Below, piece by piece: positions 8,287 to 64,000 of a DNA stretch of 64,000 nt. Made by a program: the position numbers and the translations under genes. The stretch comes from an uncultured Desulfobacter sp. (GTDB taxonomy: Bacteria > Desulfobacterota > Desulfobacteria > Desulfobacterales > Desulfobacteraceae). The stretch spans positions 744,001-808,000 of the forward strand of contig NZ_OY762229.1 of assembly GCF_963665355.1 (NCBI RefSeq). The letters are read 5' to 3'. Within the stretch, counting starts at the first letter, position 1, and each line of letters opens with the position of its first letter. Below the pieces are notes generated by a model that worked only from the letters and a program-made list of their open reading frames with translations, was not told the origin of the DNA and did not search any database.

Positions 8287-8317
8287 AATGTCAACAGAAC
8301 GTAAGAAGACAACACTT

Positions 8318-10612: not shown

Positions 10613-10646
10613 CTTTCCTCCAAACAATTTCTCACTATTTATGAAA

Positions 10647-11444: not shown

Positions 11445-11458
11445 TTTTAGCCCAACTC

Positions 11459-11845: not shown

Positions 11846-12609
11846 CACTTGTCCTCCTCAAGATTGAAATCGGTTCCGGTAATTGAAGATGCGGCGTCAA
11901 GATCTATTATTTCGGAATTCAAATAGGCCTTTGTTTTATAGTGTGTAATCGCCATCAGCTTGTTGGTAATATCTTTGAGCCGTTCTGCCTGTTCTTTAAT
12001 TTCATAAACATTTGAATCCTGAACCTGCCCGTGGTGGAGGTCGTCCATTAACAGCTCCGAAAAACCCAGAATTGCCATTAAAGGCTGGTTGATTTCGTGG
12101 CATATTGCACCGGCCAAACGAATCATAGCTGTCAGTTTTTCCTTTTCTATTTCTGAACGTTCATATTTTTTTACCGGTGTAACATCCTCAATGAACAGCA
12201 GCGCTCCATTTTTTTCTTGAAACATCAAGGGTTGGGTTGTAATTCTCAAATACCTGCGTCCAATGGACCTGAAGACCATTGATGTCTCAACCATAAAATG
12301 GCTTCTGCCGTTTTTAAGAGTATCATCCACCGTTATTCTTAATTTACATTTAAGACACTCTTTCCCAAACCCGCAGCCTTCAGGGCTATCTTCGTAATGA
12401 ATACAGCCCAAAGCCCCCCCTCCGATACCACCAACCAGCTCATCGTTATTTTTGTTGACAAACCTGCAGACCATTTTATTGGCCAAGGCAAGTTTCCACT
12501 CCGCGTCAATCACCGCCACCGCAATGGGTAAACCATCAATAATGCATAAAATTTCTTCTTTTGAAAACAGTGCGGAGAACCCCGATATGATTTCAGTTTT
12601 TTTATCCAT
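11845..12609 (-). CDS. PAS domain protein with HisKA dimerisation domain, no ATPase domain
   Basis: A 254-residue protein with good Shine-Dalgarno AGGAG. Residues about 20-145 form a PAS domain. It contains a cysteine cluster (GCIHYEDSPEGCGFGKECLK, then a further C two residues on) of a kind I recall from PAS kinases of deltaproteobacteria, possibly metal- or redox-sensing. Residues about 155-235 form a HisKA helical hairpin with ICHEINQPLMAILGFSEL, the H-box carrying the phospho-acceptor histidine. The protein then stops after ~20 residues; the HATPase_c domain that should follow is absent and is not present in another frame before the next gene. It could act as a phosphotransfer or dimerisation partner for one of the hybrid kinases encoded beside it, passing phosphate to the coupled receiver. 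Confidence 0.78.
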   Translation of the reverse strand: MDKKTEIISGFSALFSKEEILCIIDGLPIAVAVIDAEWKLALANKMVCRFVNKNNDELVGGIGGGALGCIHYEDSPEGCGFGKECLKCKLRITVDDTLKNGRSHFMVETSMVFRSIGRRYLRITTQPLMFQEKNGALLFIEDVTPVKKYERSEIEKEKLTAMIRLAGAICHEINQPLMAILGFSELLMDDLHHGQVQDSNVYEIKEQAERLKDITNKLMAITHYKTKAYLNSEIIDLDAASSITGTDFNLEEDK

Positions 12610-12630
12610 TTTTTCTCCTTTCTCCGGGCG

Positions 12631-45887: not shown

Positions 45888-45907
45888 TCGGTGTCCTTTA
45901 TAAGAGA

Positions 45908-45994
45908 GTCTGTGTAACCCACACCGATCTTTCAACCGTGGTTGCGGGTTGAGTCTGGAAGTTGATATGCCGAATCAGCCCATGGCTGCTATAT
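45908..45994 (+). repeat. 87-bp interspersed repeat, copy A
   Basis: It begins GTCTGTGTAACC and ends with the palindromic CAGCCCATGGCTG segment. About 84% identical by eye to copy B directly beside it (start-to-start 91 bp) and related to copy C on the other strand at 61418-61502. It lies just upstream of lon. No coding capacity. Confidence 0.85.
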
Positions 45995-45998
45995 GAAA

Positions 45999-46085
45999 GC
46001 CTGTGTAACCTGCACAGATCTTTCAACCTTGGTTGCGGGCTGAGCCTGGCAGCTGATATGTCAGATCGGCCCATGGCCGTTATAA
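45999..46085 (+). repeat. 87-bp interspersed repeat, copy B
   Basis: Direct tandem neighbour of copy A. Its last bases supply the stop codon of the small heat-shock gene, so the repeat abuts or was fixed at that gene's end. It shares with copy C the lead-in ATGAAAG and the core CTTTCAACCTT...GGGCTGAGCCTGGCA. Confidence 0.85.
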
Positions 46086-46532
46086 AAAATCCATGGGCAG
46101 TTTCTGCTCCGAGGCATAATTTTTATTGAGCTGTTTCCCTAATTTAAGTTCAAGAAACCCGTTGGAATATGAAGCCGTCACTTTTTTCATGTCAATGACA
46201 TTGGGTAAATAAAGAACCCGCTCAAACCGGCCGAACTGAATTTCAGCCAGTCTGTAGGTGGCAGTGGGATCCGGCTGGCTGCTCTTGCGCTCCCCGGAAA
46301 TCTTTACGGCCTTGCTGGAGAGTTCAACAACCATGTTCTCCTGACGGACCCCTGCCATTTCGGCCTGAATAATAATTTCATCCCTGGTTTCAAAAATATC
46401 CATCTGGGGTCTCCAGACGCGTTTTGAAAAGCAGAACATGGGATTAACGGATTGAAACATCTCTTCAAAAGATTTTTCCTCCGTGGCCGGTGTTTCAATG
46501 AGGTCCCCAAATCGAATTTCTATCTGTTTCAT
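46080..46532 (-). CDS. Small heat-shock protein, Hsp20/alpha-crystallin family
   Basis: A 150-residue holdase chaperone. The alpha-crystallin domain spans about residues 42-135 (PQMDIFETRDEIIIQAEMAG, VELSSKAVKISGERKS, YRLAEIQFGRFERVLYLP). The NGFLELKLGK strand is near the end; a classical C-terminal IXI motif is not evident. Start supported by AGGAG. The stop codon lies inside repeat B. A heat-shock-like pair with lon downstream on the same strand is suggested by position. Confidence 0.92.
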   Translation of the reverse strand: MKQIEIRFGDLIETPATEEKSFEEMFQSVNPMFCFSKRVWRPQMDIFETRDEIIIQAEMAGVRQENMVVELSSKAVKISGERKSSQPDPTATYRLAEIQFGRFERVLYLPNVIDMKKVTASYSNGFLELKLGKQLNKNYASEQKLPMDFL

Positions 46533-51598: not shown

Positions 51599-52801
51599 TC
51601 AGAAAAGTTTTGCGTACTTTTCATATCCCTCTTCGGCCAGTTTGTCTTTGGGGATAAACTTCAAGGCCCCGGAATTAATGCAGTACCGAAGGCCTGTGGG
51701 CGCCGGACCGTCGTCAAACACATGGCCCAGGTGGGAATCGGCTACCTTGCTTCTGACCTCGGTGCGGGTCATGAACAGACTTCTGTCCGTTTTTTCAACG
51801 ACATGCTCCGGTTCCAGGGGGCGGGTGAAACTGGGCCAGCCTGTGCCGGACTTGAACTTGTCCGTTGAGGAAAACAAAGGCTCTCCCGACACGATATCCA
51901 CATAAATCCCCTCTTTTTTATTATCCCAGAATTCATTCCGGAAGGGCGGTTCCGTGCCTTCATGCTGGGTGATTTTATACTGCATGGGGGTCAGCATTTT
52001 TTTGATGTCGGCATCCGATGGCCTTGTCCACATTGACATCTTGTCCTCTTTCATTTTATTCACGGCGTCCATCTCCTTGCCCATGGGGGCTTCGTCCATC
52101 CCGTTTTTTTTCATCTGATTGTTTTTCCATGTCTTTTCTATGAAATTATCACGACCGGAATTCCACCGGTAGTATTTGTAGCGGACAGGATTTTTTTTAT
52201 AGTAGTCCTGGTGGTACGCCTCGGCAGGATAAAAGGTTTCAAATTCCGTGATCCGGGTGACAATGGGCTTGTCAAAGATCTTGGCGGCCTCCAGGGCCTT
52301 TTTGGAAGCCGCGGCCTCCATCTTTTGCCTGTGGGTGTGGTAGAAGATTTCAGAGCGGTACTGGTTTCCCCGGTCCACAAACTGGCCGCCGGCATCCGTG
52401 GGATTGATGTGGCGCCAGAAGTAGTCCAGAAGTTCTTTATAGGTTACGACCGTTGGGTCAAAATAGACCTGAATGGCCTCGGTATGTCCTGTGCCGCCCA
52501 TGGAGACCTCCTGATAGGAGGGATGGGGCTTATGGCCGCCGGTGTATCCGGAAATCACCTTTTGGACGCCATTGACCTTTTCAAAGTCTGCCTCTGTGCA
52601 CCAGAAACAGCCCCCGGCAAAGGTGGCAATCTCAATTTCCATCATATGATCATCCATCATGCTCTTATCCATTATATTTTCGTCCATCATTTTATTATTC
52701 AAGACCTCTTCTTTCATCTCCCCCTCCATGCCGGCAAAGGCATAAAATCCAAGGGCGATGAACAGGGTGGCAAGGATCACAATGATCAGTTTGGGTTTCA
52801 T
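51599..52801 (-). CDS. msrAB: Exported MsrA-MsrB methionine sulfoxide reductase fusion
   Basis: A 400-residue bifunctional repair enzyme reducing both S and R methionine sulfoxide. It has an N-terminal signal anchor ([19 protein letters not shown]). The MsrA domain (about 55-215) has the active site [14 protein letters not shown]. The MsrB domain (about 262-395) has [25 protein letters not shown] and the catalytic Cys in [13 protein letters not shown]. MsrB lacks the zinc CxxC pairs. Two methionine-rich stretches are unusual: residues 24-54 before MsrA and about 226-260 between the domains. Start has AGGAG. Confidence 0.93.
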
Positions 52802-52936
52802 GGCGAATCTCCTTTTTATGTGTTTTGGGTTGCCTTAACCCTCATATTAGAAAGATAAGATCACAGAAAGATTGGTCAAAGGTCACAAGTTTATCACAAT
52901 ACACGTGTACTATACGCTTGCTATAGAAATACCCGG

Positions 52937-52950
52937 TTGATAAACATCAA
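52937..52950 (+). promoter_or_regulatory. Perfect FNR/CRP-family box upstream of gapN
   Basis: TTGATAAACATCAA is an exact match to the TTGAT-N4-ATCAA FNR consensus. Its centre lies about 113 bases before the gapN start codon and about 142 bases before the divergent msrAB start. It suggests control by oxygen or redox through an FNR-type regulator. Confidence 0.6.
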
Positions 52951-52959
52951 TATCATGTA

Positions 52960-52987
52960 TTGCCCTTTGGGCCATCTGTCTTAGAAT
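52960..52987 (+). promoter_or_regulatory. Possible gapN promoter
   Basis: TTGCCC, a 16-base spacer and TAGAAT (five of six to TATAAT). The upstream FNR-type box would be centred about 50 bases before the implied start site. The -35 is weak, so this is tentative. Confidence 0.3.
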
Positions 52988-53056
52988 GATGCCCGGAGAT
53001 GTGCAAAAAGAACCACCATCGACCATTAAAAAACATAACAAAATAAGTGAGGCGTC

Positions 53057-54682
53057 ATGAATAATCATCAGAAAATTGTCAGCCTGTTTCCCGCAGAATC
53101 AGACATCCCGGAAGAGTTTCGAATTTCGGAACCCCTGGAGCAGAAAGAATTTCTGGTTAACGGCCAGATCCACCACTGGGATGGTCCGGTGCAGGATGTG
53201 TTTTCACCCGTATGCGTGGCGCTGGACGGCTGTTTTAAAAAAAAGCGCATCGGCAGCTATCCGCTGCTCACGGAAAAAGAGGCACTGGAGGCTTTGGAGG
53301 CAGCCAGCCGGGCCTACGACAGCGGTCGCGGCCACTGGCCGACCCTGGCTGTGGAGGAGCGTATCCGTCATATGGAAAAGTTCGCCTACCTCATGAAGGA
53401 AAAGCGCGGGGAGGTTGTTCGCCTTCTCATGTGGGAAATCGGCAAAAACTTCCAGGATGCCTGCCACGAGTTTGACCGTACCCTGGATTATATCCTGGGC
53501 ACCATTGAAGCGCTCAAGGATCTGGACCGGGCCGGATCGCGGTTCGACATCACCCAGGGGGTGGCCGCCCAGATCCGCCGCGCGCCTCTGGGGGTGGTTT
53601 TGTGCATGGGGCCGTTCAACTATCCCTTGAACGAAACCTTTACCACCCTGATTCCGGCCCTGATCATGGGCAATACCGTGATCTTCAAACCGCCCAAACT
53701 GGGTGTTCTGTTGCACCGGCCCCTGCTTGAGGCCTTTCAAAACGCCTTTCCGCCGGGGGTTATCAATACCGTATACGGCAAAGGATCCAGGGTTGTGGGT
53801 CCGCTGATGGAATCAGGCCGCATTGATGTACTGGCCTTTATTGGTACCAGCCGGGTCGGCGACAGCCTCAAGAAGCAGCATCCCCGGCCCCACCGCCTGC
53901 GCTGTGTGCTGGGGCTGGAAGCCAAAAACCCGGCCATTATTCTGCCGGATGCAAAACTTGATGTGGCGGTTAAGGAGTGCCTTCTGGGCGCCCTGTCATT
54001 CAACGGTCAGCGCTGTACAGCCTTAAAGCTTTTGTTTGTGCATGAATCCATTGCCGAAAAATTTCTGGACATGCTCTGTCAGGAGGTGGAAAAGCTTGAA
54101 CCGGGTCTGCCCTGGCAAAACGGGGTGGGGATCACCCCCCTGCCCGAAGAAAACAAAACAGCCTATCTCCAGGAACTCATCACAGATGCCCGGCAATCGG
54201 GGGCGGCGATCCGCAATAAAAGCGGCGGCCTGGTCAATCAGACCTTCATGTTTCCGGCTGTGCTCTACCCGGTGACCCCGCAGATGCGCGTTTTTAAGGA
54301 GGAGCAGTTCGGCCCTGTGATTCCCGTGGTTCCCTATAAATCCATTGAAGAACCCCTGAGGTATGTCACGGATTCAGAATACGGCCAGCAGATCAGCATC
54401 TTCGGCACAGATCCCGGCCCCATTGCGGAACTCATCGATCCCCTGGTGAATCAGGTCTGCCGGGTCAACATCAACAGCCAGTGCCAGCGCGGTCCGGATA
54501 CATTCCCCTTTACCGGGCGTAAAAATTCCGCCGAAGGGACTCTGTCCATGTCCGACGCCCTGCGGGTTTTTTCCATCCGCACCCTGGTGGCCGGAAAACT
54601 CAACGATCTGAACAAGGAGATCATCTCGACCATTACCCGTGAGCGCAAATCCCGCTTCTTATCCACGAATTTTCTTTTGTGA
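53057..54682 (+). CDS. gapN: NADP-dependent non-phosphorylating glyceraldehyde-3-phosphate dehydrogenase
   Basis: A 541-residue aldehyde dehydrogenase of GapN type, converting glyceraldehyde-3-phosphate directly to 3-phosphoglycerate with NADPH production. Motifs: cofactor region PLGVVLCMGPFNYPLNETF, general base Glu in VLGLEAKNPAIILPDA, catalytic Cys in SFNGQRCTALKLLFVHES, and the GapN-like ending NSQCQRGPDTFPFTGRKNS. The first ~70 residues extend beyond the ALDH core start. GTGAGG lies before the ATG. The gene precedes the coupled ParA/AAA module by 158 bases with no clear terminator. Confidence 0.9.
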   Translation: MNNHQKIVSLFPAESDIPEEFRISEPLEQKEFLVNGQIHHWDGPVQDVFSPVCVALDGCFKKKRIGSYPLLTEKEALEALEAASRAYDSGRGHWPTLAVEERIRHMEKFAYLMKEKRGEVVRLLMWEIGKNFQDACHEFDRTLDYILGTIEALKDLDRAGSRFDITQGVAAQIRRAPLGVVLCMGPFNYPLNETFTTLIPALIMGNTVIFKPPKLGVLLHRPLLEAFQNAFPPGVINTVYGKGSRVVGPLMESGRIDVLAFIGTSRVGDSLKKQHPRPHRLRCVLGLEAKNPAIILPDAKLDVAVKECLLGALSFNGQRCTALKLLFVHESIAEKFLDMLCQEVEKLEPGLPWQNGVGITPLPEENKTAYLQELITDARQSGAAIRNKSGGLVNQTFMFPAVLYPVTPQMRVFKEEQFGPVIPVVPYKSIEEPLRYVTDSEYGQQISIFGTDPGPIAELIDPLVNQVCRVNINSQCQRGPDTFPFTGRKNSAEGTLSMSDALRVFSIRTLVAGKLNDLNKEIISTITRERKSRFLSTNFLL

Positions 54683-54840
54683 ATCCTTGATTTGCGGCAC
54701 TTATGTCCAGTCGAAATAAAACGGGAGATTTATCGGGGGGCGGGGCCTATAGAACTTGGGCTTATTCGGTACAAATTGTTTGATCTTGGCAATTTATCAA
54801 TGTAATTGTGGGGAACTAAAATACGGTATGGAATAGGGAA

Positions 54841-55161
54841 ATGAAGATGCAAAGATATACTGATCACGAACTGGAAGCTCTGCTAAATGATACGGAGTCC
54901 GACCTTGCAGAACGAAAGAAATCATTCAAGGGAGATACGCCAAAGAAAGGCCGTCAGGCCGTTTGCGCGTTTGCCAATGACTTGCCAAATCACAACAAAC
55001 CGGGTGTGCTTTTCATAGGGACCTGGGATGATGGAAATCCTTCCAATGAACCCATTACCGATGAATTGCTGCGCGCTTTAGCCGACATTAAAACGGATGG
55101 CAATATTTTGCCGCTCCCTGTCCTGTCTGTGGAAAAACGCATTTTAAAAGGTAAGCCATGA
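54841..55161 (+). CDS. AlbA_2/Schlafen-type DNA-binding domain fragment
   Basis: 106 residues matching only the first part of AlbA_2/SLFN-like proteins (AERKKSFKGDTPKKGRQAVC, FANDLPNHNKPGVLFIG, ITDELLRALADIKTDGNILP). The family normally runs further, through an arginine-rich segment and more domains; here it stops after VEKRILKGKP. ATGA overlap with the ParA-like gene couples the two. The second ATG (54847) is better spaced from AGGG and may be the real start. It may be a decayed protein or a minimal DNA/RNA-binding subunit of the module; I cannot tell. Confidence 0.72.
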   Translation: MKMQRYTDHELEALLNDTESDLAERKKSFKGDTPKKGRQAVCAFANDLPNHNKPGVLFIGTWDDGNPSNEPITDELLRALADIKTDGNILPLPVLSVEKRILKGKP

Positions 55162-56174
55162 AACAGCCGGTATTGACATTTTTCAATAACAAAGGCGGGG
55201 TAGGAAAAACTTCCCTTATTTATCATCTGGCCTGGATGTATGCCGCCCTTCGAAAACGGGTGGTCATTGTCGATCTTGATCCACAGGCCAATTTAACAGC
55301 GATATTCCTTGATGAGGACAGGATTGAAGAAATCTGGGACAAACAAAAAACAGGCTCGACGATATTTCAATGCGTCAGGCCCCTGACAGGTGTCGGCGAC
55401 ATTGCAGAGCCGGTTCTGAGGAATGTGGCAACCGACCTTTATCTGCTCCCCGGAGATGTCAGCCTCTCCGGATATGAAGATGCGTTGTCCGCTGAGTGGC
55501 CTAACAGCATGGGGGATAACAATCTTTACCGGCCAATGCGTATTTTAAGTTCGTTCTGGCAGGTCATGCAGATGGCGGCAGCAAAAGTTCAGGCAGACAT
55601 CATTCTGGTCGATATCGGTCCGAACCTGGGGGCGATCAACCGATCGGTTCTTGTAGCGACAGACTATGTGGTGATTCCTCTCGGGGCGGATCTTTTCTCC
55701 CTGCAAGGTTTAAAAAACCTTGGGCCTACCCTGAGAAGCTGGCAGAGCTTATGGAAAAAGAGGCTGGACAACTGGGAAACCTGCCCCGAAAAAAGCAGCT
55801 ATCCGGATTTTCACCTCCCCCAGGGCAAAATGCAAACCATCGGGTACCTTTGCCAGCAACACAGTGTACGGTTTGACAGACCGGTGAAGGCTTATGACAA
55901 ATGGGTAAACCGCATTCCCAATGTCTACCGTGATGCGGTCCTTAACCAGGCGTCAAACACGACCGTCAAGCAGAAAGATGATCCATATTGCCTGGCCACA
56001 ATCAAACACTACCGCAGTTTAATTCCCATGGCCCAGGAGCATCGTAAACCGATATTTAACCTGACATCAGCGGATGGTGCCATCGGTAGTCATGCGAATG
56101 CTGTCCAAGATGCCAGAAAAGATTTTAAGAATCTTGCATCAATAATTGCAGGAAAGATAGGATTGCAACTATGA
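55158..56174 (+). CDS. ParA-like P-loop ATPase of a phage-defence/mobile-type module
   Basis: A 338-residue MinD/ParA-superfamily ATPase. Deviant Walker A is NNKGGVGKTSLIYHLAWMYA, the switch region VVIVDLDPQANLTAIF, and Walker B IILVDIGPNLGAINRSVLVA with YVVIPLGADLFSLQGLKNLG. The second half (LCQQHSVRFDRPVKAYDKW, CLATIKHYRSLIPMAQEHRK) is conserved in a chromosomal ParA subgroup that is not tied to ParB or to plasmid partition; no parB or parS site is seen here. Its 3' end overlaps the next mini-ORF (ATGA). Role unknown; a nucleotide-dependent regulator of the coupled ATPase/TOPRIM pair is one possibility. Confidence 0.85.
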   Translation: MKQPVLTFFNNKGGVGKTSLIYHLAWMYAALRKRVVIVDLDPQANLTAIFLDEDRIEEIWDKQKTGSTIFQCVRPLTGVGDIAEPVLRNVATDLYLLPGDVSLSGYEDALSAEWPNSMGDNNLYRPMRILSSFWQVMQMAAAKVQADIILVDIGPNLGAINRSVLVATDYVVIPLGADLFSLQGLKNLGPTLRSWQSLWKKRLDNWETCPEKSSYPDFHLPQGKMQTIGYLCQQHSVRFDRPVKAYDKWVNRIPNVYRDAVLNQASNTTVKQKDDPYCLATIKHYRSLIPMAQEHRKPIFNLTSADGAIGSHANAVQDARKDFKNLASIIAGKIGLQL

Positions 56175-56266
56175 GTCAAAAAAGGGGGTTTGACTCGATC
56201 CTGGAAGAAGGTCCCAAGCTGCTCATGTGGTACGACCAGGCGGTGACAAAAACGGGAGGAGAATAA
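56171..56266 (+). CDS. 31-residue mini-protein between ParA-like and AAA genes
   Basis: The frame is MSQKRGFDSILEEGPKLLMW then YDQAVTKTGGE and a stop. It starts in an ATGA overlap with the ParA-like gene and ends in a TAATG overlap with the AAA gene, whose ribosome-binding site (GGGAGGAG) lies at its 3' end. It could be a real small protein, or mainly a coupling leader. A short ORF following this ParA type seems to recur in other genomes as far as I recall, which would favour a real product. Confidence 0.5.
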   Translation: MSQKRGFDSILEEGPKLLMWYDQAVTKTGGE

Positions 56267-57504
56267 TGGCTCTTATAGAAGGATTACGGATTCAGAATTA
56301 CCGCTCATTACGTGATATTTCAATGGGCAGAATCGGTACAGATTCAACATTGCGCAGTGCGGATCCGCTGTCACCCTTAACCGTAGTTATTGGTAAAAAC
56401 GGTGTCGGTAAAAGCTCAATTTTCGATGCATTTGGTTTTCTTGCGGATTGTATGGAAACAGATCTGGAAACAGCCTGCAATGCCAGGAACCGTGGAGGAT
56501 ATGACAAACTCATTTCTTCCGGCATTGATCAATCGATTACAATAACAATTTATTATCGTGAATCGAAAAACGATCGCCCCATCACATATGAAGTGAGTGT
56601 TGCTAAAGAAGAGAAAACAGAATTGCCCATCGTCCTCAGTGAGCGTTTAAGACAACGTGCAAAAAGCAGCGGGGGATCAGGAAGGCCGAGGTCTTTTCTG
56701 AATCTTGAAAAAGGAAAAGGCTCGGTTTATGTCGGTGACGATGCGCTTGAAGGGGATGAGGCATCAAAGCGGATTGTTGAATTTGATCCTCATAAACTGG
56801 CCATTGTCTCCCTTGCAGAGCAATTTTCAGAAAACCCGCGCATCGCTCAATTTAAAAAATTCATTCAAAGTTGGTATCTGAGCTATTTCACGCCGGATTC
56901 AGCAAGAAAAATTCCCCAGGCCGGCGTGCAAAAACACCTGAACCTTCATGGCGATAATATCGGTAATGTTGTCCAGTATATGGAGCGAAATCATCCTATT
57001 GTTTTTAAACGAATTCTTGAAGAAATATCAAAAAAAATACCTGGTATCGGCACCATAGAGCCATACAGAGACAGAATCACCAACAACCTTTATCTTCTTT
57101 TCAAGGATAAAGGCTTTGCCAAACCATTTACCCAGCAGCAAATGTCCGACGGAACATTAAAGATGTTCAGCTACTTGCTGTTGCTGAATGACCAGGAACC
57201 AGCCCCATTTATCTGTATAGAAGAGCCGGAAAACGGATTGTATCATAAATTATTGGAGACTCTGGCCCGTGAGTTCAGAGGGCACGCCACAGGCAGAAAA
57301 GGTGCTTCACAAATATTCATAACCACACACCAGCCATATTTTGTAGATGCTCTGGAACCGCACGAAGTATGGATCCTGGAAAAAGGGCAGGACGGATTTT
57401 CCACTATACGCAGGGCAAGTGACGATTCAATCGTAAAAAATATGGTTGCTGAAGGCTTGCCGTTAGGCGGACTTTGGTACAGTGATTATCTGGACGCGAG
57501 GTGA
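56266..57504 (+). CDS. AAA_21/ABC-type ATPase (RecF/OLD-like)
   Basis: 412 residues from ATG 56266 (GGGAGGAG upstream; an earlier in-frame ATG at 56227 falls inside the mini-ORF). MALIEGLRIQNYRSLRDI is the usual RecF/SMC-like start. Walker A is VVIGKNGVGKSSIFDAFGFL, the ABC signature QQMSDGTLKMFSYLLLL, Walker B PFICIEEPENGLYHKLLETL, and the H-loop FITTHQPYFVDAL. Residues about 130-260 form the variable insert. Such ATPases pair with TOPRIM nucleases in OLD- and PARIS-like defence systems; the next gene is such a partner. Confidence 0.87.
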   Translation: MALIEGLRIQNYRSLRDISMGRIGTDSTLRSADPLSPLTVVIGKNGVGKSSIFDAFGFLADCMETDLETACNARNRGGYDKLISSGIDQSITITIYYRESKNDRPITYEVSVAKEEKTELPIVLSERLRQRAKSSGGSGRPRSFLNLEKGKGSVYVGDDALEGDEASKRIVEFDPHKLAIVSLAEQFSENPRIAQFKKFIQSWYLSYFTPDSARKIPQAGVQKHLNLHGDNIGNVVQYMERNHPIVFKRILEEISKKIPGIGTIEPYRDRITNNLYLLFKDKGFAKPFTQQQMSDGTLKMFSYLLLLNDQEPAPFICIEEPENGLYHKLLETLAREFRGHATGRKGASQIFITTHQPYFVDALEPHEVWILEKGQDGFSTIRRASDDSIVKNMVAEGLPLGGLWYSDYLDAR

Positions 57505-57508
57505 TCTG

Positions 57509-58171
57509 ATGCATTTAGAGATCCTCGTTGAAGACCAGTCCGGCAAAAAAGCCCTCGATATTCTTGTCCCCAAAATCATCGGGAATGACCATACGTTCAA
57601 TGTTCACCCTTATAAAGGCATAGGCCGCATTCCGAAGAACCTTGGTGGCAAGGCGGATGTCAGCAAACGCATTCTGCTTGATCAGCTCCCGAAGCCCCTC
57701 CGTGGATACGGGAACACTTTTGCTAATTATCCAGCCGGGTATCCGGCTGCCGTCATTCTTGTCTGCGATCTTGATGACAAGTGTCTCAAAACATTTCGCC
57801 AAGAGCTTTTAGCTATTTTGAATGTCTGCAACCCCAAACCTGAGACCCGTTTTTGCATCTGCATTGAAGAAGGTGAGGCCTGGTTTCTTGGCGACATTCC
57901 GGCGATCAGATCAGCTTATCCAAAAGCCAAACACGCTGTCTTGAATGCATACGTAAATGATTCCATTTGCGGCACCTGGGAGCGCTTGGCAGATGCCGTA
58001 TATAAAGGTGGTTCAACCGCACTTTCAGCAAAAGGCTGGCAATCTGTCGGTGCTGAGAAATCGCAGTGGGCTGAAAAGATTTCCCCGTACATGGATGTAA
58101 CAAATAATGCTTCCCCAAGTTTTGCTTATTTCCGGCAAAAGTTGCTTGAACTCTCTGGATCAACGAAATGA
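57509..58171 (+). CDS. TOPRIM-like protein (DUF4276-like) paired with the AAA ATPase
   Basis: 220 residues from ATG 57509, four bases after the ATPase stop, with AGGTGA upstream. The conserved Glu near the N-terminus (LEILVEDQSGKKALDILVPK) and a DxD motif (AVILVCDLDDKCLKTF) match the acidic layout of TOPRIM nuclease/DUF4276 proteins. CICIEEGEAWFLGDIPAI is a further conserved stretch. Predicted metal-dependent nuclease or nucleotide enzyme. Its end overlaps the acvB remnant (ATGA). Confidence 0.78.
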   Translation: MHLEILVEDQSGKKALDILVPKIIGNDHTFNVHPYKGIGRIPKNLGGKADVSKRILLDQLPKPLRGYGNTFANYPAGYPAAVILVCDLDDKCLKTFRQELLAILNVCNPKPETRFCICIEEGEAWFLGDIPAIRSAYPKAKHAVLNAYVNDSICGTWERLADAVYKGGSTALSAKGWQSVGAEKSQWAEKISPYMDVTNNASPSFAYFRQKLLELSGSTK

Positions 58172-58626
58172 GTACAGGGCTTTCAAAAAAGGGATTCTCT
58201 GTGGCCTGTCTTAACTCACTGGCCTATTTCTGGTCCAAGAAAACGCCGGGAACGGCCGCCCGGGATCTGGATCGCATCATCAACCACTATCTGACCCGCT
58301 GGGACAAAAACAAGGTGTGGCTGACCGGTGTGGCCCTGATCAGCCCCAGCCTCCATTCCGATTTCGAGATCTCGATCAGTTCCTGGCGGGGAAATTCAAA
58401 GCGGGAGCCTAAGTATCCGTTGCTTCCGGAACTGACCAAATCCGAGGCCTATCCCGTATTGTGCCTGGCCGGAGATGATGATGATGATGACTGCCTTTGC
58501 AAGAATCTCAACCTTACAGGGGTAAAATCAGTCTTGCTTCCGGGAGGACACCATCTGGGCGGAGATTATGACAGACTCGTTGACACCCTTGTTCTGGGCC
58601 TTGAAAAGCAAAGAGGTAAGCTATGA
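58168..58626 (+). pseudogene. Remnant of acvB/virJ (lysyl-phosphatidylglycerol hydrolase family), lacking nucleophile
   Basis: The reading frame (152 codons) is homologous to the C-terminal AcvB/VirJ domain: LSKKGFSVACLNSLAYFWSK, then ARDLDRIINHYLTRW, VALISPSLHSDFEIS, and LPGGHHLGGDYDRL with the catalytic-type His. Two parts are missing. The N-terminal half with signal peptide and oxyanion-hole segment is absent. An internal in-frame stretch of ~35 residues is also gone: KVWLTG jumps directly to VALISPS, losing the GYSFGAD nucleophile elbow. The frame is still open and overlaps mprF (ATGA), but the product should be catalytically dead and cytoplasmic. A GAT repeat (about 58475-58490) makes a poly-Asp run. 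Confidence 0.75.
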
Positions 58627-61181
58627 AAAACACAATAAAACCTTTCCTTGGTTTGACACTCAGCCTGGCACTGTTCGCAGGCGCCGCATTTCTGATGCAC
58701 AGGGAGCTTTCTGTGTATCATTTCAACGAGGTGATTGCCACTTTTCGAAGTATTCCTTTGGAAATCCGGTTTTCCGCCTTTTTTTTAACCTTTATCAGTT
58801 ACGCTGTCCTGACGGGCTATGACACCCTTGGGCTGAAATATATTCATAATACTTTGCCCTACCCGAAAATCGCCCTGGCCTCCTTCACCGGTTATGCCTT
58901 CAGCAACAACATCGGACTGTCAATGATAGCAGGCGCTTCGGTGCGGTACAGACTGTATACGGCATGGGGGCTTTCAAGTTTCGATATCGCAAAGGTGGTG
59001 GGATTCTGTGCCGTCACCACATGGTTGGGTTTTTCTCTTTTGAACGGCCTGGCCCTTGTGGCCCACCCCGGACTTCTGGGTGCCGCTGTTCACATCACGC
59101 CATGGCTGATCCGGCTTCTGGGCCTGTGCTTTATAATTATAGTCGCAGGGTACCTGGCTTTTTCCCTGGGTGGAAAGAAGATGTTTTCTCTTCGGGGTCG
59201 TGAAATCCGCGTGCCTGACACTTTTATCGCCTTTTCCCAGGTCGTGCTGGGTGTTCTGGACTGGACCCTGGCCGGCATGGTTCTCTATCTGCTGCTGTCC
59301 CATTTTGCCGATCTGTCCCTTCCGGGGTTCCTGACGGTCTACCTGGTCTCACAATTGGCGGCTCTGTTCAGCCAGGTGCCGGGCGGACTGGGTGTATTTG
59401 AATCACTCATGGTCATGTCCCTGTCTGCACAGATTCCGGCGCCCCACATCCTGGGGGCTCTGATTGCTTTCCGGGTGATTTACTACTGGATTCCCCTGGG
59501 GATTGCGGCTCTTCTTCTGGGAGGCCAGGAGCTGCTTCGCGGAAAAAAACACACCACAAAACTGATATCCCTGTTCGACCGCTGGGTATCCCCCATGATA
59601 CCCAGTGTATTGGGATTCACGGTGCTCCTCGGGGGAGCCATCCTGCTGTTTTCCGGGGCGACACCGGGCCTGGAGCCACGGATTGAGCACCTGAAGGAAT
59701 TTTTCCCCCTGCCTTTCATCGAAGTCTCCCATTTTCTGGGAAGCATTGCAGGGATGGGCCTTCTTCTGCTTGGACGGGGCCTTCAGCGGCGTCTTGACGC
59801 GGCATATATACTCAGTGTAATTCTGCTTTTCCTGGGCATTGCGGCCTCCCTGGTCAAAGGGTTTGACTATGAAGAAGCTGCTGCACTTGCCGTAATTCTG
59901 GCAGCCCTGCTGCCCAGCCGCAGGCATTTTTACAGAAAAGCATCCCTGTTCAGCCAGAAATTCAGCCCGGGATGGACCACGGCTCTTTTGATTATCCTTG
60001 TATCATCCACCTGGCTGGGATTTTACGCCTACCGCCATGTTGAATATGCAGACGCCCTGTGGTGGCAGTTTACCTTTAAAGGAAATGCGGCCCGTTTCCT
60101 GCGGGCCACCCTGGGCGTGTCGGTCATGGGGCTGTTTTTCGCCCTGGCCCGTCTGATGAAACCCGGTATGCCCAAGGCCCGGTTTCCCAATGACGATGAG
60201 TTAAAAACAGACATCCTGCCCATCGTGCGCCGGTCGGAAAGCGCCACGGCAAATCTGGCCCTTCTGGGCGACAAAATGATTCACATGAACCAGAACAAAA
60301 ACGCCTTTATCATGTACGGCGTTGAAGGAAAAAGCTGGGTCTCCATGGGTGATCCCGTGGGGCCGGTGACGACCTGGCCGGATCTGATCTGGCGGTTCCG
60401 GGAATTGGTTGATCAGGCCGGCGGATGGCCCGTGTTTTATCAGATAAGCCATGAATGGCTCCATATGTACCTGGATATGGGATTTACCATGGTTAAGCTC
60501 GGTGAAGAAGCCCGGGTTCCCCTTGAAACCTTCAATATTGACGGCCATTCCCGGAAAAATTTAAGAAGCTGCAAAAACAAATTTGAAAAAACGGGATACG
60601 TGTTCACCGTTCTTGAGCCGGATCAGGTCCGGCTTCGCATGGAAGAGCTCAAGGCCGTTTCCGATGCCTGGCTTGAGATAAAAAGCGGTAGGGAAAAGGG
60701 ATTTTCCCTGGGTTTTTTCAGTCCGGATTATCTATCCATGAACCCCGTGGCCATTGTGGAAAAGGACGGAAAGATCGAAGCCTTTGCCAATCTGTGGCAA
60801 AATGCCGGAAAGCAGGAACTCTCGGTGGATCTCATGCGGTTTACACCCGGTGCACCCAACGGTACCATGGATTACCTGTTCACGGCGATCATGCTCTGGG
60901 GCAGACAGGCCGGCTATGCCTGGTTCAACCTGGGCATGGCGCCTTTTTCCGGCATTGAGGCCTCCCATGTGGCACCGTTCTGGAACAGACTGGGCGCCTT
61001 TGTGTTCAACCATGGGGAGACGGTGTACAATTTCCATGGATTGCGGCAATACAAGGAAAAATTCGACCCGGTCTGGTCGCCACGCTACCTTGCGGCACCG
61101 GGGGGATTGGCCATGCCGGTGGTTTTTACCAATCTTGCGTCACTTATTTCAGGCGGTGTCAAAGGACTGCTTCTGCACTAA
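58623..61181 (+). CDS. mprF: Bifunctional lysyl-phosphatidylglycerol synthase/flippase MprF
   Basis: An 852-residue membrane protein. The N-terminal flippase part (about 1-500) has roughly 12-14 helices (SNNIGLSMIAGASVRYRLYT, GLGVFESLMVMSL). The C-terminal DUF2156 GNAT-like synthase domain (about 530-850) transfers an aminoacyl group from tRNA to phosphatidylglycerol (FIMYGVEGKSWVSMGDPVGP, FANLWQNAGKQELSVDLMRF, YAWFNLGMAPFSGIEASHV). It lowers negative surface charge and gives peptide and acid resistance. In alphaproteobacteria lpiA/mprF is paired with acvB, as here with the remnant upstream. Confidence 0.92.
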   Translation: MKNTIKPFLGLTLSLALFAGAAFLMHRELSVYHFNEVIATFRSIPLEIRFSAFFLTFISYAVLTGYDTLGLKYIHNTLPYPKIALASFTGYAFSNNIGLSMIAGASVRYRLYTAWGLSSFDIAKVVGFCAVTTWLGFSLLNGLALVAHPGLLGAAVHITPWLIRLLGLCFIIIVAGYLAFSLGGKKMFSLRGREIRVPDTFIAFSQVVLGVLDWTLAGMVLYLLLSHFADLSLPGFLTVYLVSQLAALFSQVPGGLGVFESLMVMSLSAQIPAPHILGALIAFRVIYYWIPLGIAALLLGGQELLRGKKHTTKLISLFDRWVSPMIPSVLGFTVLLGGAILLFSGATPGLEPRIEHLKEFFPLPFIEVSHFLGSIAGMGLLLLGRGLQRRLDAAYILSVILLFLGIAASLVKGFDYEEAAALAVILAALLPSRRHFYRKASLFSQKFSPGWTTALLIILVSSTWLGFYAYRHVEYADALWWQFTFKGNAARFLRATLGVSVMGLFFALARLMKPGMPKARFPNDDELKTDILPIVRRSESATANLALLGDKMIHMNQNKNAFIMYGVEGKSWVSMGDPVGPVTTWPDLIWRFRELVDQAGGWPVFYQISHEWLHMYLDMGFTMVKLGEEARVPLETFNIDGHSRKNLRSCKNKFEKTGYVFTVLEPDQVRLRMEELKAVSDAWLEIKSGREKGFSLGFFSPDYLSMNPVAIVEKDGKIEAFANLWQNAGKQELSVDLMRFTPGAPNGTMDYLFTAIMLWGRQAGYAWFNLGMAPFSGIEASHVAPFWNRLGAFVFNHGETVYNFHGLRQYKEKFDPVWSPRYLAAPGGLAMPVVFTNLASLISGGVKGLLLH

Positions 61182-61184
61182 ACA

Positions 61185-61204
61185 ACCCGGACCGGGTATT
61201 TTTA
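61185..61204 (+). terminator. Probable terminator after mprF
   Basis: ACCCG-GAC-CGGGT hairpin three bases after the mprF stop, followed by ATTTTTATT. The short stem makes it moderate in strength. Confidence 0.5.
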
Positions 61205-61264
61205 TTCATACCCGCCAGGGTATTGCAAGGCGGTCAATTTATAATCATTCATAAGGACGTTATT

Positions 61265-61390
61265 ATGATCTAACCGGGGGTAAATGATTACAAAAGCAAC
61301 CTGGCACTGCCCTGGGGATGGGAACGCGATATCATACTTTTTACCCAAGGAAAAAAGGTTTCCCTGATACAGGAAGATGTATTATCTTGA
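61265..61390 (+). pseudogene. Possible broken short gene with stop at codon 3
   Basis: AAGGA and ATG ATC TAA are followed in the same frame by 38 open codons (PGVNDYKSNLALPWGWERDI, then FTQGKKVSLIQEDVLS) to TGA at 61388. The good ribosome-binding site and in-frame continuation look like a small gene inactivated by a nonsense change. I do not recognise the family. It may be chance. Confidence 0.25.
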
Positions 61391-61417
61391 AAAAACAAAA
61401 TTAATTACGGGACATTT

Positions 61418-61502
61418 TTAAACAGCCATGGCTGGCCTGCCATATCAGTTGCCAGGCTCAGCCCACAACGAAGGTTGAAAGTTCTGGGCCGGTTACACAG
61501 AC
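61418..61502 (-). repeat. Interspersed repeat, copy C (inverted relative to A and B)
   Basis: On the minus strand it begins GTCTGTGTAACC and contains CTTTCAACCTT, GGGCTGAGCCTGGCAACTGA and CAGCCATGGCTG, aligning end to end with copies A and B at 45908-46085. It lies between mprF and the DsrE-like lipoprotein gene. Confidence 0.85.
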
Positions 61503-61534
61503 TTTCATTTAAACTATTAGGAAAGGATGGAAAA

Positions 61535-61960
61535 ATGCGTAAAATTATTGTGTTATTGTCTTTTGTATCTCTTCTTTTTATTGCCGCATGCGGACATGAC
61601 AGCTCTAAGCATCTTCTTGTCGTCGTAACAACAGATGATCCGGTTACACAATCAATGTCAATGGTGCTGGCTGAGCAGTCCATGAAAAAAGGGGCAACTG
61701 TGGAGATTCTTCTGTGTGGCAAAGCCGGTTCTCTGGCCATCAAGGATTCTGAACAGGTATTGTTAAAGCCCCAGAATATATCCCCCCAGATGATGTTGCA
61801 AAATCTGATCCGCAACAAAATCAGTGTCGAACTGTGTCCGATATTCCTGGCAAATTCCGAGAAAAGCATTCCAAATCTGATAGATGGCGTGACCATTGCC
61901 AAGCCGTCCATAGTGGCGGATAAACTTCTTCGGGAAAACACAAAAATCTTAAGTTATTAA
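61535..61960 (+). CDS. DsrE-family-like lipoprotein
   Basis: 141 residues from ATG 61535 (AAAGGA upstream). The signal peptide ends in a lipobox (LLFIAAC), so Cys 19 is probably lipidated and the protein faces the periplasm. The rest looks like a DsrE/YchN-type fold (LLVVVTTDDPVTQSMSMVLA, EQSMKKGATVEILLCGKAGS, LIRNKISVELCPIFLANSEK, GVTIAKPSIVADKLL). Two cysteines lie at likely loop positions. DsrE proteins normally carry sulfur in the cytoplasm; a lipid-anchored form may act on periplasmic sulfur species. Substrate unknown. Stands alone. Confidence 0.75.
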   Translation: MRKIIVLLSFVSLLFIAACGHDSSKHLLVVVTTDDPVTQSMSMVLAEQSMKKGATVEILLCGKAGSLAIKDSEQVLLKPQNISPQMMLQNLIRNKISVELCPIFLANSEKSIPNLIDGVTIAKPSIVADKLLRENTKILSY

Positions 61961-61988
61961 CGGTGTTTGATTGATCCACAGGCATTGC

Positions 61989-62032
61989 AGTCACAGAAGT
62001 CATAAGTTTAAACGCTTATGACTTCTGTGACT
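61989..62032. other. Large perfect hairpin (18-bp stem)
   Basis: AGTCACAGAAGTCATAAG pairs perfectly with CTTATGACTTCTGTGACT around an 8-base loop. It lies 28 bases after the DsrE-like stop and 20 bases before the TRIC-like start. There is only a short T-run afterwards (TTT), so it may be a terminator, an RNA-stabilising stem or part of a mobile repeat. Confidence 0.8.
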
Positions 62033-62052
62033 TTGGGGTTTAATGTCCAAAC

Positions 62053-62661
62053 ATGACAGACGTATTAATCCTATTATTTGATTACTCAGGCACCTTTGCT
62101 TTTGCAGTTTCAGGAGCACTTGCTGCCAGTGAAAAAAAGCTCGATTTATTCGGCGCTTTGTTTCTTGGATTTGTAACGGCTATTGGTGGTGGTACAACGC
62201 GCGATATGATGATTGGCAACACGCCTGTGTCATGGCTTCAAAACCCTGTTTATTTTTATATTATTGTGGCTGCTGTTGGGCTTACATTTTTATTTACCAA
62301 AACAATATTGCGGTTTCCCAGAGCGCTTTTCTTTTTCGATACGGTGGGAATCAGTGTCTTTACCATTATTGGCATTCAAAAGGGACTGCACGCCGGTATT
62401 CATCCGCCACTGGCCGTTATGATGGGCATTTTGACAGCTGTTATGGGTGGAATTATCCGTGATGTGCTCTGTAACGAAATCCCTCTGATTTTCCATAAGG
62501 AAATATATGCCACAGCCTGCTTCGCCGGTGGTGTTTTCTTTGTGCTTTTTGTGTTTTTCAACATGCCCGAACCTTTTACTGCTCTGATCGCTGCGGGTGT
62601 TATTTTTACAATCCGCTCACTGAGTGTCCGAAAAGGTTGGGCACTGCCGCGGTTTAAATGA
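62053..62661 (+). CDS. TRIC/UPF0126 family membrane protein (YicG/YadS-like)
   Basis: 202 residues with about seven membrane helices and two internal repeats. Each repeat carries a GG-TRD-type motif: FAFAVSGALAASEKKLDLFG with TAIGGGTTRDMMIGNTPVSW, and TAVMGGIIRDVLCNEIPLIF. This is the bacterial relative of trimeric intracellular cation channels, thought to pass K+ or amino acids such as glycine. The stop is one base short of the convergent kinase gene's stop codon. Confidence 0.9.
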   Translation: MTDVLILLFDYSGTFAFAVSGALAASEKKLDLFGALFLGFVTAIGGGTTRDMMIGNTPVSWLQNPVYFYIIVAAVGLTFLFTKTILRFPRALFFFDTVGISVFTIIGIQKGLHAGIHPPLAVMMGILTAVMGGIIRDVLCNEIPLIFHKEIYATACFAGGVFFVLFVFFNMPEPFTALIAAGVIFTIRSLSVRKGWALPRFK

Positions 62662-62662
62662 T

Positions 62663-64000
62663 TTATTGGGGCCGCTGCCACGGAGGCAGAGAAAACGAAA
62701 AACAGCTGCCGCTGCCGGGACGGCTTTCAACCTGGACCTGGCGGCCGTGGAGCTGGAGAATTTTTGCGGTTATGGCAAGGCCCAGGCCGGTATGCCCCCC
62801 GGTTTTCTTGCCGAGCGAATCGGACTGGTAGAAGCGGTTGAAAATATGGGGCAGCTCTTTTTCAGGAATGCCCGGGCCTGTGTCGGAGATCCGGATCACC
62901 ACCTCGGTTTCCAGGGAAACCGTGATGCCGACCCGGCCCTTTACCGGGGTATAGTTCAGGGCGTTTTCAATGAGGTTTTCCAGGGCTCTTTCGATCAGGG
63001 CGATGTCTGCCTCGACAAAGGGAACGCCCCCTTCAAACTCTTGGACCAGTTCAATCTCTTTTTGTTCTGCGGCAAGGGTGAATTTTTGACAGATATCCTG
63101 AATCAGCTCCCTGGGATCAAAGATTTCCAGAGAAAGATCCATGCGGGCGGATTCCAGCCGGGCCAGCTCAAGCAGTTCCGAGACCAGGGTGTTGAGGCGG
63201 CGGCAGTGGCGGATGGCAATATCAAGGTAATGACGCCGTTCTTCCCCGGAGTATTGATTGTCCTTGATGAGCAGGGTCTCGATATATCCCTGCAGGGTGG
63301 CCAGGGGGGTGCGCAGGTCATGGGAGACATTGGCCACCAGCTCCCGGCGCATCTGGTCGGATGCCTTCAGCTCCGCCACCTGGGCCTTGATCCGGGCGGC
63401 CATCTCCCTGAAGGTGGTGCCCAGCCGGTCAATTTCATCGGGCGGACCCTGTGGCCCGGGCAGGTACACATCAGCCCCGGCACTTCCGCCTTCAAAAGCC
63501 GCCATCACAGCGGCAAGTTTTTTCAGCCGCCCGGTGAGAAGACCGAAAAGGACCAGCCCCGCTGCCAGTGCAAAGAGAAGGCCGGCCCCGATCATCCAGG
63601 CGGAAAGCCTCAGGATATAACTGCCTTTAAGTTTCTGGGCCACGGAATCGTATTCCTCCCCGCCCAAAATGACGTAGAGATAACCTTCAAGGATGCCGTT
63701 TCGTTCAATGTGTGCCGCTGAAAAGACTTTTTTCCCGGTGGGGTTTTTGGGGTCATCTCCCAGAACCGGTGGGGTCAGCGTACCGTCCAGCCACTGCTTT
63801 ACCGGGGCCAGAGACACTTTGCTGCGCTTGACGCTTCCCCCGGGTGCGGAAAAGGTCAGGATGTTTCCCCCAACGTCCAGAAGGTAGATCTCAATGCCGG
63901 GGTTGATGACCATGAGCATGTGAAAGATGTCCCTGAGGGCCTCCTGGTTCACCCGGCCCCCTTCCATGAGAATCCGCTCTTTGACGATTTGCCGGGCAAG
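62663..64000 (-). CDS. Sensor histidine kinase with HAMP domain (runs off right edge)
   Basis: 445 visible codons, open to base 64000, so the true N-terminus is outside. A periplasmic sensor part (about to visible residue 140, YLYVILGGEEYDSVAQKL) is followed by a membrane helix (LSAWMIGAGLLFALAAGLVL), HAMP, HisKA (VANVSHDLRTPLATLQGYIE) and HATPase_c (LENLIENALNYTPVKGRVGI, ISDTGPGIPEKELPHIF, GGHTGLGLAITAKIL). Classical membrane kinase of the PhoR/BaeS type without a receiver. Its response regulator probably lies beyond the window. Confidence 0.9.
   Translation of the reverse strand, partial: LARQIVKERILMEGGRVNQEALRDIFHMLMVINPGIEIYLLDVGGNILTFSAPGGSVKRSKVSLAPVKQWLDGTLTPPVLGDDPKNPTGKKVFSAAHIERNGILEGYLYVILGGEEYDSVAQKLKGSYILRLSAWMIGAGLLFALAAGLVLFGLLTGRLKKLAAVMAAFEGGSAGADVYLPGPQGPPDEIDRLGTTFREMAARIKAQVAELKASDQMRRELVANVSHDLRTPLATLQGYIETLLIKDNQYSGEERRHYLDIAIRHCRRLNTLVSELLELARLESARMDLSLEIFDPRELIQDICQKFTLAAEQKEIELVQEFEGGVPFVEADIALIERALENLIENALNYTPVKGRVGITVSLETEVVIRISDTGPGIPEKELPHIFNRFYQSDSLGKKTGGHTGLGLAITAKILQLHGRQVQVESRPGSGSCFSFSLPPWQRPQ

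What the first reader, a model, noticed from the sequence alone, without database searches (positions are those of the whole stretch)
54841..58171. Candidate defence module: AlbA fragment, ParA-like ATPase, mini-ORF, AAA ATPase and TOPRIM-like protein in one coupled operon
Five reading frames follow each other with ATGA or TAATG overlaps or a 4-base gap. The last two are an ABC-type ATPase with intact Walker A, signature and Walker B and a protein with TOPRIM-like acidic motifs (Glu near the N-terminus, DxD). That pairing is known from OLD- and PARIS-like anti-phage systems. Here it is joined upstream by a ParA-like ATPase and a 31-codon ORF, which I do not recognise as part of a described system. 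The module sits between gapN and a truncated acvB, as expected for recent insertion.
Basis: partly seen in the sequence, partly recalled or inferred. Interest (0 to 1): 0.75.

Follow-up and report, generated by a model that had tools for sequence, protein, structure and literature searches.

The report
Decayed BREX operon with two dyads
This is not a new five-gene defence system but the wreck of a known bacterial antiviral operon, in which a known ATPase-nuclease pair survives intact beside one half of a second, apparently undescribed two-gene unit.

Summary

HEC-01 lies with BREX-3 or Hma genes in at least 12 of 80 loci; in another genome of the genus its ATPase sits between brxC, a pglXI stump and pglZ. 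This ParA is absent from all 80. It belongs to a separate Schlafen-ParA dyad (16 of 17 other ParA loci, 15 with the ATGA overlap). In two Hma operons that dyad fills the helicase-methyltransferase slot that HEC-01 fills elsewhere.

Best reading: a BREX-3-derived island between gapN and acvB lost its host system and one effector but kept HEC-01 and an orphan ParA. New here is the Schlafen-ParA dyad, a candidate toxin-antitoxin-like unit.

The parts
53057..54682 (+). aldehyde dehydrogenase (gapN-like), left flank of the island
   Evidence: Pfam Aldedh 329.5 bits; 86% identical DNA in G567 and G571
54693..58167 (.). inserted island, absent from the same place in G567 and G571
   Evidence: homology to these relatives stops at 54691-54692 and resumes at 58621 (L155) or 58512 (L156)
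54841..55161 (+). Schlafen/AlbA_2-HATPase_c_4 gene reduced by an in-frame deletion of about 298 of 402 codons; start, about 102 codons and the last 2 codons kept
   Evidence: alignment and junction DNA against seven relatives; full-length relative is AlbA_2 + HATPase_c_4
55158..56174 (+). ParA/Soj-type (AAA_31) ATPase, intact; second half of the Schlafen-ParA dyad
   Evidence: Pfam AAA_31 100.9 bits; four relatives at 74-78% identity, three with full-length AlbA
56171..56266 (+). relic of pglXI (BREX type-3 methyltransferase): about 8 codons of uncertain origin plus its last 23-24 codons
   Evidence: PADLOC PglXI profile positions 895-918 of 919, E 7.6e-6; tail profile E 9e-11; same peptide ends intact PglXI
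56266..57504 (+). HEC-01A, OLD/AAA_21-type ABC ATPase, intact
   Evidence: PDLC04182 566.8 bits over 1-411; AAA_21 119 bits
57509..58171 (+). HEC-01B, DUF4276, TOPRIM nuclease-like, intact
58168..58626 (+). acvB (VirJ) remnant, 5' truncated and with a 25-residue internal deletion; right flank
   Evidence: VirJ 103 bits; comparison with 259-aa acvB of L157
58623..61181 (+). lysyl-phosphatidylglycerol synthase (lpiA/mprF-like), right flank
   Evidence: LPG_synthase_C 322 bits; 90% and 88% identical proteins in G567 and G571

Best explanation
The island is a decayed defence locus derived from type-3 BREX, in which two embedded effector dyads outlived their host system. (1) HEC-01, intact: an OLD-type ABC ATPase and a separate TOPRIM nuclease. 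Inferred: the ATPase senses infection or anti-restriction activity and licenses the TOPRIM subunit to cut nucleic acid, as AriA does for AriB in PARIS. (2) A Schlafen(AlbA_2)-HATPase + ParA dyad, now half dead. Inferred: the Schlafen protein is an RNase effector, and the ParA ATPase holds it inactive or switches it on. Only ParA remains whole here, as expected if the harmful half is lost first. Between them lies the stump of pglXI. Shown: the identities of the parts, the relics, the separateness of the two dyads, the shared embedding slot and the empty site. Inferred: nuclease activities, trigger and toxin/antitoxin roles.
For: HEC-01 identity; ATPase gene directly in front of DUF4276 in 80 of the 80 loci kept of 191. 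OLD-like fold with invariant E8, D87, D89. HEC-01B dN/dS 0.115 against L002. PglXI tail. HEC-01A in a partly deleted BREX-3 of the same genus: BrxC', PglXI N-terminal 131 aa, HEC-01A, PglZ, BrxA (G092). PglXI remnants in front of HEC-01 also in L019, L060, L071, L072. Slot HmaA-[dyad]-HmaB held by HEC-01 in L022 and L059 and by Schlafen-ParA in L110 and L128. AlbA upstream of ParA in 16 of 17 other loci, with the 4-base overlap in 15 of those 16. AlbA broken or shortened in 5 of 16 plus the window; ParA open in five of these six. No PglZ and no PglXI at E <= 1e-100 in the window's genome. Precedents, read in passages: PMC12839542 (OLD-TOPRIM and Schlafen-HK-wHTH as BREX/BR backup effectors), PMC3710099 (HEPN + ParA/Soj proposed as toxin + antitoxin).
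Against: No functional data. Only 12 of the 80 HEC-01 loci showed BREX-3 or Hma genes with my panel of queries, so HEC-01 often stands elsewhere. 8 of 16 Schlafen-ParA pairs showed no recognised defence neighbour in the stretch fetched, and no random-locus baseline was measured. Two AlbA relatives (G043, G018) have no ParA and one ParA (G144) has no AlbA. No relative with AlbA-ParA directly in front of an intact pglXI was found; in L002 and L019 a different AlbA_2 subfamily without ParA stands upstream of pglXI. So AlbA-ParA and pglXI-HEC-01 may have been joined by deletion, not inherited as one operon. Foldseek alone gave no match at E <= 0.001 for DUF4276.
Confidence: 0.75

Rival explanations
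1. A functional new five-component anti-phage system: the AlbA fragment, ParA and the 31-residue peptide act with the ATPase and TOPRIM protein.
For: All frames are open and translationally coupled; both ATPases keep their motifs; the AlbA deletion is in register and the relic frame is open, as if coupling were kept.
Against: 0 of 80 HEC-01 loci hold relatives of P0001 or P0002; AlbA has about 402 codons elsewhere; the 31 codons carry a methyltransferase C-terminus.
Confidence: 0.07
2. HEC-01 and ParA are all still active and ParA has been recruited as an extra regulator of HEC-01 after loss of its Schlafen partner.
For: ParA is intact and co-transcribable; ATGA/TAATG coupling links it to HEC-01A through the relic.
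Against: No second genome with this arrangement in the loci examined (G092 and G013 hold both families but on different contigs); persistence of an antitoxin-like gene explains it equally; synonymous sites are saturated in all ParA comparisons with the window, so selection after the AlbA loss could not be measured.
Confidence: 0.15
3. AlbA-ParA is a plasmid or phage partition remnant, unrelated to defence.
For: ParA family; match to a PHROG called ParA-like partition protein (154 bits); the nearest named solved structures are Soj segregation proteins; distant plasmid and phage homologues.
Against: Partner is Schlafen-HATPase, not ParB; pairs sit in Hma and beside MmeI/GmrSD, Wadjet and type III methyltransferase genes; distant ParA homologues are ATGA-coupled to SIR2 genes in 3 of the 6 plasmid records looked at, of 16 found.
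Confidence: 0.1

Closest known systems
HEC-01 (PADLOC Hma-embedded candidate 01)
   Same: HEC-01A ATPase 566.8 bits and HEC-01B DUF4276 327.4 bits over nearly full length, adjacent, same order; in L022 and L059 the same pair sits between HmaA and HmaB
   Different: here next to a pglXI stump, not in Hma; the ATPase clusters with L072/L044/L023/L112 while DUF4276 is nearest to L002/L004, so the pair looks recombinant
OLD nucleases / PARIS (AriA + AriB)
   Different: two genes instead of one OLD chain; no AriB profile match; HEC-01A scores 450 bits higher than AriA
BREX type 3
   Same: the 31-codon ORF is a PglXI C-terminus; HEC-01A lies inside a BREX-3 locus in the same genus
   Different: no BrxC, PglZ, BrxH or complete PglXI in the island; no PglZ and no PglXI found in the whole genome
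HEPN (MAE_18760) + ParA/Soj dyad (Anantharaman et al. 2013, PMC3710099, passages read)
   Same: small dyad of a putative RNase with a ParA/Soj ATPase, proposed there as toxin + antitoxin
   Different: here the RNase-like partner is Schlafen/AlbA_2-HATPase_c_4, not HEPN; some copies stand directly before Hma methyltransferase genes
Schlafen RNases fused to minimal histidine kinase and wHTH as BREX/BR backup effectors (Rakesh & Krishnan 2026, PMC12839542; outline, passages and part 1 of section 25 read)
   Same: AlbA_2 + HATPase_c_4 architecture, linked to BREX and BR/Hma core genes
   Different: ParA partner; the words ParA, MinD, Soj and SIMIBI do not occur in the main text of that paper (supplements not seen)

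Membership tests
HEC-01 | ATPase matching HEC-01A model | tested here: met
   PDLC04182 6.3e-171, residues 1-411
HEC-01 | DUF4276 protein matching HEC-01B model, adjacent | tested here: met
   PDLC04205 9.5e-99, residues 1-214; 4-base gap
HEC-01 | embedded in an Hma operon (the feature behind the name) | tested here: not met
   neighbours are a pglXI stump and acvB; 7 of 80 relatives do lie with Hma genes
OLD-type TOPRIM (HEC-01B) | TOPRIM fold with acidic site | tested here: met
HEC-01 | protects against phage | not testable with these tools
   needs plating assay
PARIS | AriB-type TOPRIM partner | tested here: not met
   12 PADLOC families listed for P0005 at E <= 0.1, none AriB
MADS | MAD3 ATPase over curated cut-off | tested here: not met
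   NF047739 94.5 bits, cut-off 420
BREX type 3 (functional system) | PglZ and PglXI present | tested here: not met
   0 PglZ matches in own genome; no PglXI at E <= 1e-100 in own genome; stump only in window
BREX type 3 (origin of the relic) | PglXI C-terminal sequence | tested here: met
   tail profile E 9e-11; PDLC02541 positions 895-918/919
Schlafen-ParA dyad (proposed here) | AlbA_2-HATPase_c_4 gene with 4-base overlap to ParA | tested here: met
   16 of 17 other ParA loci have AlbA upstream, 15 of those 16 with the overlap; in the window the overlap is kept but AlbA is only a remnant
Schlafen-ParA dyad (proposed here) | Schlafen catalytic carboxylates | tested here: inconclusive
   E17 and E22 invariant in 12 aligned relatives, the same 5-residue spacing as SLFN13 E205/E210 (PMC5862951, passages); third carboxylate not fixed
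Toxin-antitoxin with ParA as antitoxin | effector toxic alone, neutralised by ParA | not testable with these tools
   only the pattern of loss (effector broken, ParA open) was seen

The most novel reading that the evidence does not exclude
Schlafen(AlbA_2)-HATPase + ParA is an undescribed mobile anti-phage dyad that shares the helicase-methyltransferase embedding slot with HEC-01. ParA/Soj ATPases would then be a general switch or antitoxin for cell-suicide effectors: Schlafen here, SIR2 in distant plasmid relatives, HEPN in the 2013 proposal. Such embedded dyads would outlive the BREX and Hma systems that carried them.
Probability: 0.45. Interest if true: 0.65.

Novelty: new variant of a known kind. 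Interest (0 to 1): 0.5.

Why it matters
It gives a catalogued but barely studied candidate (HEC-01) a predicted fold, an active site and a documented history inside BREX-3. It shows that embedded effector dyads can remain after the host defence operon has been deleted down to a stump, so tiny coupled ORFs beside such dyads can be read as fossils of the lost system. It also proposes a testable new dyad, Schlafen-ParA, and a wider rule that ParA-type ATPases govern nucleic-acid- or NAD-destroying effectors.

Tried and rejected
Five-part module: rejected, because no other locus examined combines the parts. PARIS, MADS and a functional BREX: rejected as memberships. Target-site duplication: TCAAAAAAGGG occurs at 56176 and 58183, but six other two- or three-copy families of similar length lie in the same 4.2 kb; not claimed. 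The first 8 residues of the relic (MSQKRGFD) resemble some PglXI starts (MSQKK in L019, MSQQ in L144) but are too short to prove a native start. L064 also hints at a PglXI tail (E 0.005) and L112 more weakly (0.038); not counted. Selection on ParA and on the ATPase could not be dated: synonymous sites are saturated in the window's comparisons. Promoter and terminator scans were not above shuffles. The Rfam scan of 52000-64000 and the tRNA scan of the window were empty. A viral-contig search with ParA found nothing. Foldseek alone missed the OLD match; the BFVD search had no match at E <= 0.001. A profile search of the PDB with DUF4276 gave four hits at E 0.2-0.35, taken as chance; the ATPase had none. 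ParA matches under 40% identity (G129, G143, G006, G057, G067, G035 and a second copy in G000) were dropped from the pair count; three of them (L091-L093) were looked at with P0001 and gave no hit. Only neighbours that looked like defence genes were sent to PADLOC, so 8 of 16 is a count without a baseline. The HEC-01 context count rests on a panel of 13 query proteins at E <= 1e-15, so 12 of 80 is a lower bound.
Full report
1. What is there. The five frames lie as described: 54841-55161, 55158-56174, 56171-56266, 56266-57504 and 57509-58171, followed by an ATGA-coupled sixth frame, 58168-58626. The window is bases 744001-808000 of a 5.54-Mb contig.

3. The 31-codon ORF is a fossil. Its residues 7-30 match the last 24 positions of the PglXI profile, and PglXI proteins of 882-951 aa end in the same peptide...LEEDPKLLMWYDQAVTRxGGE or close to it. 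PglXI is the type-3 BREX methyltransferase, called BrxXI in PMC12839542 (part 1 of section 25 read; equation of the two names recalled). A tail profile finds the window at E 9e-11. The same search over 89 HEC-01 loci (84 with at least 150 nt upstream; at least one record is held twice) plus tblastn finds complete or nearly complete PglXI upstream of HEC-01 in L002, L004 (two copies) and L020, and remnants in L019 (residues 9-75 and 884-933), L060 (871-932 with stops), L071 (about 25 codons), L072 (212-248 joined in frame to 620-934, at a contig end) and L099/L175 (3-133). The last is G092, of the window's genus: BrxC (positions 1-983 of 1231, fused in frame to the tail of an AlbA-type protein), PglXI stump, HEC-01A, then PglZ and BrxA. 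There the DUF4276 gene gave no hit; between HEC-01A and PglZ a 13-codon frame remains whose start (MHF) and end (REKLDVLAGD) resemble the two ends of DUF4276 (read by eye). G123 gives a type-3 set without HEC-01 in the slot: BrxC, PglXI, an AriA/PtuA-like ATPase, BrxH, PglZ. The window's genome itself has no PglZ match and no PglXI at E <= 1e-100.

4. The AlbA frame is a fossil too. In relatives with a complete gene it has 394-402 codons and carries SLFN_AlbA_2 plus HATPase_c_4. The window keeps about 102 codons and the last two, with AAGCC and the ATGA overlap: an in-frame loss of about 298 codons.

5. ParA belongs to a separate dyad. Searches of 146 genomes of the order and 395 of the phylum (the sets overlap) give 17 loci besides the window with ParA at about 47% identity or more. 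AlbA lies directly upstream in 16 of 17. The 4-base overlap is present in 15 of these 16; in L127 the frames are broken. The exception, G144, has a Septu PtuA/PtuB pair upstream instead. From the other side, 10 of 146 genomes have the AlbA family at E <= 1e-40, the window's included; 8 of the 10 have ParA next to it, G043 and G018 do not. AlbA is complete in 11 of the 16 pairs. It is shortened in frame in L105 (-125 codons) and L125 (-30), deleted with a frame change in L132, frameshifted in L130 and broken in several places in L127. ParA is open in all of these except L127. Because ParA was the bait, this asymmetry is suggestive only. G092 and G013 hold both ParA and HEC-01A, on different contigs.

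6. Shared slot. L110 and L128 read HmaA - AlbA - ParA - HmaB, with ParA ATGA-coupled to HmaB; L110 also has a 90-aa ORF after HmaA, and each locus is cut by a contig end in one Hma gene. L022 reads HmaA - HEC-01A - HEC-01B - HmaB with the same 4-base coupling, and L059 has the same order up to its contig end. In L124 and L126 ParA is followed by a remnant that looks like the start of a DUF1156-type methyltransferase (read by eye). Recognised defence genes lie near 8 of the 16 pairs: MmeI and GmrSD (G026), AAA_21 with a HEC-01B/mad4-like protein (G054), Hma (G058, G264), SNF2 helicase, HmaB-like methyltransferase and HEC-01A (G045), type III methyltransferase (G289), PDC-M30B/M41B (G226), Wadjet JetB/JetC (G484). 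The other 8 showed none in the stretch fetched, and no baseline was measured. Of the 80 HEC-01 loci, 12 carry BREX-3 or Hma methyltransferase or helicase genes at E <= 1e-15 with my panel: 5 PglXI type, 7 Hma type.

7. Mechanism. Established elsewhere: in PARIS the OLD-type AriA senses the phage Ocr protein and activates the TOPRIM AriB, and Schlafen proteins with minimal kinase and wHTH are listed as BREX/BR backup RNases (PMC12839542, passages). SLFN13 cuts tRNA with E205, E210 and D248 (PMC5862951, passages); E17 and E22 are invariant in 12 AlbA relatives with the same spacing. A HEPN + ParA/Soj dyad was proposed in 2013 as toxin + antitoxin (PMC3710099, passages). Distant ParA homologues (28-32% identity) on plasmids are ATGA-coupled to SIR2_2 genes in Salmonella enterica, Spirosoma oryzicola and Vibrio ponticus, the first with a DNA methyltransferase upstream; three other plasmid records looked at show no such partner, and 10 of the 16 were not looked at. 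Inference: HEC-01 is a backup nuclease triggered by its ATPase, and ParA controls a Schlafen RNase. In the window only HEC-01 can still work as a unit. HEC-01B is under purifying selection (dN/dS 0.115 against L002 with unsaturated sites).

8. History. G567 and G571 lack the island. Either an AlbA-ParA-pglXI-HEC-01 operon arrived and then lost pieces, or two neighbouring dyads were brought together by the deletion that consumed pglXI and whatever lay upstream. No intact AlbA-ParA-pglXI locus was found to decide; in L002 and L019 an AlbA_2 protein of another subfamily (with Fic-like_C), without ParA, stands upstream of pglXI. The HEC-01 pair itself looks recombinant: the ATPase is 85% identical to those of L072 and L044 and 58% to L002/L004, while DUF4276 is 83-86% identical to L002/L004 and 69-73% to L072, L044 and L023.

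9. Novelty. HEC-01 is catalogued in PADLOC, and PMC12724379 names it in a list of detected systems (passage). PMC12988326 (passages) says that several Hma-embedded candidates, HEC-06 among them, have shown antiviral activity; whether HEC-01 is one of them I could not see, as the preprint it cites (Payne et al. 2024) was not held and not read. For Schlafen or AlbA with ParA, four searches of the held library listed 15 entries in all; judged by title and abstract, only the HEPN paper and the BREX survey bear on it, and the others were not opened. The 2025 bioRxiv preprint on bacterial Schlafens, cited in PMC12839542, was not held and may describe such a dyad. PADLOC 2.0.0 matches the four ParA proteins tested only over about 38 residues of PDC-M28B.

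Noticed in passing
window 45899-46092 and 61415-61511: A repeat of about 100 nt, two tandem copies and one inverted copy 15 kb away (76-85% identical); related short copies occur in G571 (L156 6800-6860), so it may be a small dispersed element of the genus.
   Followed up: partly
window 61989-62032: Near-perfect palindrome (91% self-complementary over 46 alignment columns), possibly a terminator.
   Followed up: no
window 58168-58626; L155; L156; L157: acvB is decaying in this genus: truncated here, absent in G567, a tail in G571, complete in G530 of the same family, while mprF is kept.
   Followed up: yes
window 56266-58171: The HEC-01 pair looks like a recombinant of two lineages, with the switch near the end of the ATPase gene.
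   Followed up: partly
L175 (reverse strand, 7795-12892): In G092 BrxC is fused in frame to the C-terminal end of an AlbA-type protein, PglXI is a 131-residue stump, and behind HEC-01A only a 13-codon frame resembling both ends of DUF4276 is left.
   Followed up: partly
L170 2896-5910: On a Salmonella enterica plasmid: DNA methyltransferase, ParA and SIR2 genes in a row, ParA-SIR2 with a 4-base overlap; the same ParA-SIR2 pair in Spirosoma (L172) and Vibrio ponticus (L173).
   Followed up: partly
L171 4704-6663: A close HEC-01 pair (80.6% for HEC-01B) on a conjugative Pseudomonas plasmid between type IV secretion genes and the relaxase gene.
   Followed up: no
L003 2376-2672, L019 8408-8704 and L002 8399-8704: A 98-101-aa ORF (MSGGHFDYQE...) sits directly in front of HEC-01A in three loci; unidentified.
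   Followed up: no
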